Of a DNA stretch of 64,000 nt, positions 23,317-25,518 are shown piece after piece. This stretch comes from Collybiopsis luxurians FD-317 M1 (taxonomy: Eukaryota; Basidiomycota; Agaricomycetes; Agaricales; Omphalotaceae), in contig KN834771.1 in the NCBI GenBank assembly GCA_000827265.1, positions 670,708-734,707 of the forward strand, given 5' to 3'. Made by a program: the position numbers and the translations under genes. The notes beneath the pieces are model-generated. The model saw only the letters and a list, made by a program, of their open reading frames with translations, made no database searches and had not been told where the DNA came from. Every line of letters starts with the position of its first letter. The stretch's first letter is position 1.

Positions 23317-25518
23317 ATGAAACTTGGCACTCTCAACCTCTGGGGACTCGCCGCCCTCCTTCTACCATTAGGAATAGTCGTTGCCAGCGAAAAGTCATGC
23401 ACCGTCACTCCGCTCGGACACGGACGAGGTGAGTTCAAGTATTAACTCGAATACTTTTTTTTCATCATGTACTCTGTAGACGACACTGATCAGGTCAGGA
23501 AATGAGACGAACTCAGAGAAATGAACTCACTCAGTAAGTACAGGTTTTGGCCGCAATTTCCGAATGTGGGACCAATGGAACTATCACGTTCGAGGAAGGA
23601 AACTTTAACATTACGAGGTCAGTTACATCTCAACTCACAATCAATCCGTATTTTATCCGTGTGTATATTCCTATGAACCACTCAGAAAAATGACCTGGGA
23701 CCTACACTCCGCAAAAGTCGACTTGTTTGGTTTCATGAACGTAAGTATGGACACCTTGTACCCAGATAATTCGAGCTGAAAGCATCCTTCATCTTCCCAG
23801 TTCTTTCCTGACGTTGAATTCTGGCTAAACATGTCAAACACATACCAGGTGGTATTTATTCAGGTGTGCATCATTCTACTAGTCGAAGTATCGGTCTACT
23901 GACCCCAACCACAGAGTCAATCCTCTTGGTTCGTTGTTACCGGGTCCGACTTTGTAATCGACGCGCACAATACTGGCGGGATTCAAGGCAACGGTCAAGT
24001 CTGGTGGGACTTTTTCTCCAATCGCACACGAGAAGATGGTGATGGTCGGCCAATTTCTCTGACACTCTTCAAAGTCAACGGAGGAACAATACGAAACTTC
24101 CTCATTGAAGCTCAGCCCTTCTGGTGCAACGCTGTAGCGGAGTCTCAGAATGTAGTATACGACGGGATGCTCTGTAATGCTACAAATACTAATCCCGAAT
24201 TTGCCGGTACCAAGTAAGTTTTACGGTACTGTCTGGCCACCCTACGAGTTTAACCGCACGCAATAGTCTTGTACCAAACACGGATGGAATCGATACGTAC
24301 AGAAGTGACCAGGTATCGCTTCTGAATTGGGATATTACGTGCGGAGATGATTGTCTTGTAAGTAAAATCGGATTTGCTTCTCCCTGTCCCACTTACATGT
24401 ACCTCTTCAGGCGTGAGTTGTTCTTGAATGCAGAGGCACTAAGTTTTTTTGACTCGTCTGCGCACAGCATTAAAGGCGTAAGTCTTTGATGAATCACCAC
24501 CGCTATACTAGTAGCCACACTAATGGAACTGTAGAACTCCACCAACTTGTTGGTTCAAAACGTCACTTGCCGTGGGGGCAATGGAATCGCCTTTGGTTCT
24601 CTAGGTCAATATTTCAATCTGGTGAATCGCCATCTATCTATCTATCTATCCCTACATAGACTTATCCGACAAAATAGAGCGATATCGTTGAAAACGTTCA
24701 TATGGAAGACCTCAGAGTACGCCAATCATTACCAAGCCCAACAAATTTCAGCTTGATACTCACCAAAGCCCGCAGATGATCCGTCTTCCTCCTCAAGTAC
24801 AGCCGAATATGGGAACTGGTGTAAGTTTTGTTTGGCCAAGCCTCTATTCTGCAGTCTGTTGAATTCTTCCATCTTCTCCATTGTGGTACAGGTCTATTTC
24901 AAAACTTGGACCGGACAAGTTTCTGGCACTCCGCCCACGGGAGGTGGAGGTGGCACGTTTGTCTCACTTTGATTTCTTGTTTTCAATCGTTTGCGAATGA
25001 ACAGCATGCAGGGGACACGTCCGTAACGTGACGGTCCAAAATGTTAACGTCGATCAAGTCGACCTTCCTCTCCACGTTTACCAGACAAATGGCGGCAGCT
25101 CGTAAGTCAGGCTAAAGAAGAGTTCTATAATGCATTATCTAATCATCCTTTTCCAAGCTCTCAAACACCCTCGACGCTCATGTTCAGCGAATTACACTTT
25201 GAGGACTGGACAGGAAATGCGACGGGAAATACACGTATGTCTCTATGACTTCAATTGCTGACACTTTGTTGTAAACTTTTTCTTCGAAGTTGTTGAACTG
25301 GCATGTAGCCCTGCCGTCAACTGCACTGATATCACCTTCAATTCGTTCCAAGTAAGCACCGCAGACAATGAAGCGGCGCGGTTTATTTGCCAGAATGTAG
25401 TTGATTTATCCGGATTGCAAGGTAAGTCGGGGCAGCAGTTAAAGATTTTAACGCTATATAACCCTGGTTAACCTTCTTACACTGTACAGCACCGTGCAAT
25501 TCAACTGGAGAAGCGTAG
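23317..25518 (+). CDS. Secreted glycoside hydrolase family 28 (polygalacturonase-like)
   Basis: Seventeen exons give 427 residues in one frame: 23317-23428, 23480-23493, 23544-23617, 23686-23740, 23801-23863, 23915-24213, 24267-24357, 24411-24412, 24468-24477, 24535-24621, 24678-24716, 24776-24820, 24892-24956, 25012-25101, 25158-25234, 25290-25421 and 25490-25518. A signal peptide (MKLGTLNLWGLAALLLPLG) is followed by a right-handed parallel beta-helix with GH28 motifs NTDG, GDDCL and GGNGIAFGSLGQ, plus many N-glycosylation sequons. The canonical GHG histidine is replaced (GNG), and VYFK stands where RIK is usual, so the bond cleaved cannot be stated. Three exons are 14, 10 and 2 nt. Acts on pectic polymers outside the cell. 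Confidence 0.88.
24411..24412 (+). other. Predicted 2-nt micro-exon (GC)
   Basis: The two bases lie between CTCTTCAG and GTGAGT, both consensus splice sites, with introns of 53 nt (24358-24410) and 55 nt (24413-24467). Including them turns CTT + GC + CATTAAAGGC into LAIKG and keeps the family motif DDCLAIKGN in frame; leaving them out shifts the frame. Confidence 0.7.

What the first reader, a model, noticed from the sequence alone, without database searches (positions are those of the whole stretch)
24358..24467. Predicted 2-nt micro-exon in the GH28 gene
Seen: the bases GC at 24411-24412 sit between a consensus acceptor (CTCTTCAG) and a consensus donor (GTGAGT), with introns of 53 and 55 nt on each side. 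Only with GC included do the exons 24267-24357 and 24468-24477 join in frame and recreate DDCLAIKGN, the GH28 active-site region. One single intron across the region shifts the frame; a CAGAG acceptor would insert 11 extra residues in the catalytic motif. Two-nucleotide exons are at the limit of exon definition and would need intron-defined or stepwise (stwintron-like) removal.
Basis: partly seen in the sequence, partly recalled or inferred. Interest (0 to 1): 0.78.

Follow-up and report, generated by a model that had tools for sequence, protein, structure and literature searches.

The report
Two-base exon in a mushroom pectinase
A mushroom gene for a pectin-digesting enzyme appears to contain a coding exon only two bases long, inside its catalytic motif and kept in a sister gene; it is an extreme but not unprecedented splitting of a gene that automatic annotation can miss.

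Summary
The window carries an intact 17-exon GH28 gene (23317-25518, 427 aa) of an omphalotaceous mushroom, most likely Collybiopsis luxurians. GC at 24411-24412 lies between good splice sites, with introns of 53 and 55 nt, and supplies two bases of the Ala codon of GDDCLAIKGN. Of 191 one- and two-intron splice forms enumerated across the junction, exactly one restores the motif, and it uses the 2-nt exon.

The best new evidence is a paralogue on contig C119 (73% aa identity) with the same 91-nt / 2-nt GC / 10-nt exons at the same positions and phases, although the two flanking introns align no better than shuffled sequence. The public C. luxurians protein matching that paralogue contains translated intron at this place.

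No RNA evidence was available. I judge GC a constitutive 2-nt exon, spliced stepwise by intron definition. It is not a stwintron: on the sequence either intron can go first. One-nucleotide exons are published for Arabidopsis and, with RNA reads, for Fusarium (2026), so this is a new member of a known kind. Side result: exons 8 and 9 total 12 nt, so skipping both keeps frame and loses only AIKG.

The parts
23317..25518 (+). GH28 gene, 17 exons, 427 aa plus stop (start and exon boundaries predicted)
   Evidence: Hand model translated without internal stop; PF00295 138.4 bits against a cut-off of 22.9; internal exon boundaries returned independently by a spliced alignment of Lentinula P0001
24267..24357 (+). 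Exon 7 (91 nt), ends ...GGA GAT GAT TGT CTT (GDDCL)
24358..24410 (+). Intron 7, 53 nt, phase 0, GTAAGT...CTTCAG, CTTAC with A 15 nt before the 3' end
24411..24412 (+). Exon 8: the 2-nt exon GC, first two bases of the Ala codon
   Evidence: Sole solution among 191 enumerated forms; same exon in the C119 paralogue
24413..24467 (+). Intron 8, 55 nt, phase 2, GTGAGT...GCACAG, TTGAC with A 15 nt before the 3' end; retained, it gives GCG TGA
24468..24477 (+). Exon 9: 10-nt micro-exon CATTAAAGGC
   Evidence: also 10 nt in the paralogue
24478..24534 (+). Intron 9, 57 nt, phase 0
24535..24621 (+). Exon 10 (87 nt), starts AAC TCC (NS...)

Best explanation
GC at 24411-24412 is a constitutive 2-nt exon of a working GH28 gene. 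Each flanking intron (53 and 55 nt) carries its own donor, branch-like motif and acceptor and is recognised across the intron, so exon length does not limit recognition. The acceptor of intron 7 and the donor of intron 8 are two bases apart and can hardly be occupied by two spliceosomes at once, so the introns are removed one after the other, in either order. The product is CTT-GC-CATTAAAGGC, which restores GDDCLAIKG beside the catalytic aspartates. Shown here: the sequence, the frame, that the solution is unique among the enumerated forms, and its conservation in a diverged paralogue. Inferred: that splicing happens so in the cell, the stepwise removal, and the fate of mis-spliced RNA.
For: Sole solution: 1 of 191 forms in the window and 1 of 100 in the paralogue give the motif. 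Paralogue C119: exons of 91, 2 and 10 nt, CTT|GTGAGC..TTAG|GC|GTAAAT..CTACAG|AATCAAAGGC|GTGAGT, same positions and phases, while interiors of introns 7 and 8 align no better than 100 shuffles (z -0.1 and 0.5). Of 133 homologous proteins listed, 129 have GDDC[LIVM]A[ILVFM]KGN and 131 have the Ala. The P0009 model of the C119 protein carries VSLRNFSNP, the translation of the first 27 bases of that intron 7, in place of AIKG. Intron sizes fit: the other 14 introns of the gene are 50-71 nt, the merged stretch would be 110 nt. The sites are good: donors GTAAGT and GTGAGT, acceptors CAG, YTNAY motif with A 15 nt from both 3' ends. Strict-site coincidence in 6 of 200,000 shuffles.
Against: No RNA evidence. 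Conservation is shown in one paralogue of the same genome only; no DNA of other species could be had. In pre-mRNA the intron 8 donor has C at the last exon base (GGC|GTGAGT, 5 of 9 matches to CAG|GTAAGT), one of the poorer scores in the gene (range 4-8), and the paralogue's intron 8 donor GTAAAT is weaker. Most annotated relatives show an intact AIKGN (129 of 133), which gene finders would seldom get right across a 2-nt exon, so the exon may be confined to this lineage. My aligner does not penalise tiny exons: with GC forbidden it chose another 2-nt exon (24418-24419) for 13 of 13 queries, and P0007 gave a spurious 3-nt exon at 25099-25101.
Confidence: 0.92

Rival explanations
1. The two micro-exons are not used: one 177-nt intron (24358-24534) joins exon 7 to exon 10, giving DDCLNSTN without AIKG.
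For: In frame in both genes, because 2 + 10 = 12 nt.
Against: The intron would be 177 nt against 50-71 nt for the 14 other introns. It deletes a tract present in 129 of 133 homologues, and none of the 133 listed proteins reads exactly so. Splice signals of all three small introns would be idle in both paralogues.
Confidence: 0.03
2. A single intron uses the GAG acceptor ending at 24435, giving L-ALSFFDSSAHS-IKG.
For: In frame and open (stop at 438 instead of 428).
Against: Net +10 residues next to the catalytic aspartates; GAG acceptor directly behind a CAG. The nearest like form in the paralogue (donor 1709, acceptor 1815) inserts a different sequence of another length, CQYAYR in place of A, so it is not conserved.
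Confidence: 0.01
3. A stwintron or recursive splice site: intron 7 is removed and the next intron starts at the junction itself, with GC as a GC-AG donor (24411-24467), leaving no exon.
For: GCGTGA could be read as a weak GC donor (one search lists it as such).
Against: The product equals skipping GC, CTT-CAT-TAA, a stop at codon 238. A near-perfect GTGAGT lies two bases on. No splice element of either intron is interrupted by the other.
Confidence: 0.01
4. Assembly error or pseudogene: the frame problem is an artefact or decay.
For: No reads were available to check the assembly.
Against: The remaining frame is open through 17 exons, the protein is 81% identical to Lentinula over 98% of its length, and the same arrangement stands on a second contig.
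Confidence: 0.02

Closest known systems
1-nt exon of CYP621A P450 genes in Fusarium (PMC12940212, 2026; parts 1 and 2 of 3 read)
   Same: Ultra-short exon inside a conserved motif in a fungus with short introns, needed for frame, mispredicted in public models.
   Different: 1 nt, ascomycete, P450; 20 orthologous genes in the abstract and 18 RNA reads. Here 2 nt, basidiomycete, GH28; two paralogues and no RNA.
1-nt exon of APC11 in Arabidopsis (PMC4674806; abstract and Discussion read) and 1-nt exons of APC11 and VPS55 across plants (PMC8831610; passages read)
   Same: Constitutive, frame-keeping, conserved, missed by annotation; the authors argue for intron definition with stepwise removal.
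   Different: Plants; tested by constructs, RT-PCR and RNA-seq.
Spliceosomal twin introns (stwintrons) of ascomycetes (PMC6616335; passages read)
   Same: Adjacent short introns removed by consecutive reactions under intron definition.
   Different: In a stwintron the internal intron interrupts a splice element of the external one, so the order is fixed and no exonic base is kept. Here two exonic bases are kept and the order is free.
Microexon of Xlr2 in Trichoderma virens (PMC11121469; abstract and passages seen)
   Same: A microexon in a filamentous fungus.
   Different: Regulated inclusion in a transcription factor; no sign of regulation was tested here.
8-nt exon in P450 CYP5141A1 of Phanerochaete chrysosporium (mentioned in PMC12940212)
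   Same: Basidiomycete micro-exon in a conserved motif.
   Different: 8 nt, P450.

Membership tests
Ultra-short (1-2 nt) constitutive micro-exon | Flanked on both sides by complete introns with their own donor and acceptor | tested here: met
   Donors GTAAGT and GTGAGT, acceptors CAG, YTNAY motifs
Ultra-short (1-2 nt) constitutive micro-exon | Needed for the reading frame and a conserved motif | tested here: met
   1 of 191 forms restores the motif; skipping stops at codon 238
Ultra-short (1-2 nt) constitutive micro-exon | Conserved in homologous genes | tested here: met
   Met in the one close paralogue examined, C119; orthologues of other species could not be tested, no DNA held
Ultra-short (1-2 nt) constitutive micro-exon | Included in mature RNA | not testable with these tools
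   No RNA data
Stwintron | Internal intron interrupts a splice element of an external intron | tested here: not met
   Donor and acceptor of both introns are whole in the unspliced sequence
Stwintron | Obligatory inside-out order of excision | tested here: not met
   By sequence, removing either intron leaves the other's signals intact; not tested in RNA
Glycoside hydrolase family 28 | Match to PF00295 above the curated cut-off | tested here: met
   138.4 bits against 22.9, residues 89-412
Glycoside hydrolase family 28 | NTDG and GDD active-site motifs (recalled as the catalytic motifs) | tested here: met
   PNTDGIDT and GDDCLAIKGN in the spliced protein; aligned to solved GH28 chains such as 4c2l
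Exo-polygalacturonase (galacturonan 1,4-alpha-galacturonidase) | Exo-acting activity | not testable with these tools
   Only the database names of relatives

The most novel reading that the evidence does not exclude
Exons 8 and 9 form a 12-nt in-frame cassette kept in both paralogues. The order or completeness of stepwise splicing decides between active enzyme (AIKG included), an immediate stop (intron 8 detained: GCG TGA in the window gene, GCG TAA in the paralogue) and an in-frame enzyme lacking AIKG beside the catalytic aspartates, so that micro-exon splicing works as a switch on pectinase output.
Probability: 0.05. Interest if true: 0.75.

Novelty: new member of a known kind. Interest (0 to 1): 0.42.

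Why it matters
It extends 1-2 nt exons to a basidiomycete carbohydrate-active enzyme and shows one outlasting a gene duplication while its flanking introns turned over. Three introns separated by 2 and 10 nt are a compact natural substrate for asking how intron definition copes with overlapping splice-site footprints. In practice, gene models can break such motifs: the public model of the paralogue's protein lacks AIKG and carries translated intron in its place.

Tried and rejected
Introner or intron-copy origin: the stretch 24340-24500 has one match in the genome, itself (that search skips simple repeats and very common words).

Other GH28 genes of the genome as outgroups for intron position: 14 regions fetched, C119 treated apart, the other 13 scanned for a contiguous GDD-type motif. 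Six GH28-like motif sites on five loci read straight through the place of introns 7 and 8. Two further pattern hits were not GH28-like and were dropped. On eight loci the pattern found nothing, which says nothing either way.

So the age of the 2-nt exon outside this genome is open.

Odd motifs in other proteins: P0004 (Lentinula raphanica, GDDCLACNTTN) and P0121 (Mycena latifolia, GDDSRNITC) deviate at this place and may be splice mispredictions; P0089 (Panaeolus papilionaceus) has extra residues between IKG and N, at the place of intron 9. Without their DNA I draw nothing from them.

The window gene's own product was not among the 120 of 659 hits listed, so its public model could not be compared.

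Label slip of mine: the forms labelled 'CAG 24435' and 'GAG 24437' are mis-named; one search gives the true sites (AG ends at 24433 and 24435). In the same call the last exon was one base too long; one search has it right (25518).

Both ends of the C119 model are unsettled: the alignment started at residue 19 of the query and the modelled last exon ends without a stop. Its structure was found with the window protein as a guide, and again with 13 other proteins over the micro-exon region.

Full report
What is there. The window lies in a 64.3-Mb, 200-contig genome (G000; window = C23:670708-734707). Its GH28 gene runs 23317-25518 in 17 predicted exons and gives 427 aa plus a stop; PF00295 matches with 138.4 bits. 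The best homologues are Lentinula (79-81%), Tetrapyrgos, Rhodocollybia, Gymnopus, Stygiomarasmius and Collybiopsis. The predicted protein of the paralogue on contig C119 is identical to P0009, Collybiopsis luxurians FD-317 M1, except at three places where the public model splices differently and for one residue before its Met. The genome is therefore most likely that species (Omphalotaceae), although the contig lengths differ (119,035 here, 132,012 for P0009), so the assembly or strain may be another.

The 2-nt exon. Exon 7 ends GAT GAT TGT CTT, exon 8 is GC, exon 9 is CATTAAAGGC, exon 10 starts AAC TCC; together GDDCLAIKGNS. A spliced aligner that I wrote, given only Lentinula P0001, returned all internal exon boundaries of the hand model, 24411-24412 included. 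With 13 homologues picked from 133 it chose the 2-nt exon in 13 of 13 runs on the window gene and in 13 of 13 on the paralogue. This is weaker than it sounds, because the aligner does not penalise tiny exons: with GC forbidden it chose a poorer 2-nt exon at 24418-24419 in 13 of 13, at a cost of 26 of its own score units, and P0007 also gave a spurious 3-nt exon elsewhere. The stronger test is enumeration. From 24337 to 24477, with GT or GC donors, AG acceptors and introns of 30 nt or more, there are 191 one- or two-intron forms, 45 of them open in frame; exactly one gives GDDCLA[IVL]KG. In the paralogue it is one of 100, 27 of them open. Forms with no intron, three introns, or both micro-exons skipped are outside that count; they were looked at. 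By shuffling, a GC between strict sites at legal distances arose in 6 of 200,000 sequences and between loose sites in 41 of 50,000.

Conservation. The paralogue (G000:C119, minus strand; 73% identity over 411 columns) has exons of 91, 2 and 10 nt at 89383-89293, 89235-89234 and 89168-89159. Its 15 modelled introns match the window's introns 2-16 in position and phase; the window's intron 1 is absent there. Interiors of introns 7 and 8 align no better than shuffled sequence (z -0.1 and 0.5 against 100 shuffles each; the gap-free columns show 78% and 72% identity, as the aligner places gaps freely), while 3 of the 15 introns keep some similarity (z 2.3 to 3.1). The 12 larger exons that could be compared keep 60-76% nucleotide identity. 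So the AG|GC|GT arrangement has been kept while the two introns round it changed. In the paralogue the intron 8 donor is GTAAAT, short of the strict consensus. Six other GH28-like motif sites of this genome read straight through this place without an intron.

Annotation error as a footprint. P0009 reads GDDCLVSLRNFSNPNSSN. VSLRNFSNP is the translation of the first 27 bases of the paralogue's intron 7, and AIKG is missing. Of 133 homologous proteins, 129 have the intact motif; the exceptions are P0004, P0009, P0089 and P0121. I hold DNA only for P0009's gene. The many intact models cut the other way too: they suggest that most relatives do not have the 2-nt exon, which I could not test.

How it works. 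Both introns are short (53 and 55 nt; the gene's other 14 are 50-71 nt), and each has its own donor, a YTNAY motif with A 15 nt from the 3' end, and an acceptor (the motif as branch-site consensus is recalled). Recognition across the intron is therefore possible without an exon of any size. The sites facing each other across two bases can hardly be bound at once (inference), so removal should be stepwise; the Arabidopsis authors argue the same for a 1-nt exon and the plant survey says that such exons are too small for both flanking introns to be processed at the same time. Unlike a stwintron, either order leaves the second intron whole. Mis-splicing is costly: in the window gene skipping GC or keeping intron 8 stops at codon 238, keeping intron 7 at 281, skipping exon 9 at 260; in the paralogue model the stops are at 274, 220, 237 and 226. 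Keeping both introns is open in the window gene but stops in the paralogue. Skipping exons 8 and 9 together removes 12 nt and stays in frame in both, an isoform worth looking for.

Comparison. A 1-nt exon with read support is published for Fusarium CYP621A (PMC12940212, parts 1 and 2 of 3 read); its introduction cites 2-5 bp exons in Arabidopsis, Drosophila and human. 1-nt exons of APC11 and VPS55 are known in plants. I saw no report of a 2-nt exon in a basidiomycete or in a GH28 gene in nine searches of the held open-access library (listings with abstracts only, apart from the six papers opened). Subscription papers are mostly not held, so absence from print is not shown.

Verdict. The finding is real on sequence evidence and its interpretation is supported; RNA is the missing piece. 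It is a new member of a known kind.

Noticed in passing
window 24468-24477 and 23480-23493: The same gene has two more very small exons, 10 nt (exon 9) and 14 nt (exon 2); exon 9 is also 10 nt in the C119 paralogue.
   Followed up: partly
L031 (G000:C119:87600-91000), minus strand: Paralogous GH28 gene with the same 2-nt exon; its public model P0009 disagrees with mine at three places (near FAGM, at GDDCL, and at the C-terminus), so that record probably needs correction.
   Followed up: yes
   Followed up: no
window 24358-24467: The 110-nt stretch including both introns is open in the reading frame of exon 7 (net +36 aa if fully retained); in the paralogue the same retention hits a stop, so it looks like chance.
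   Followed up: yes
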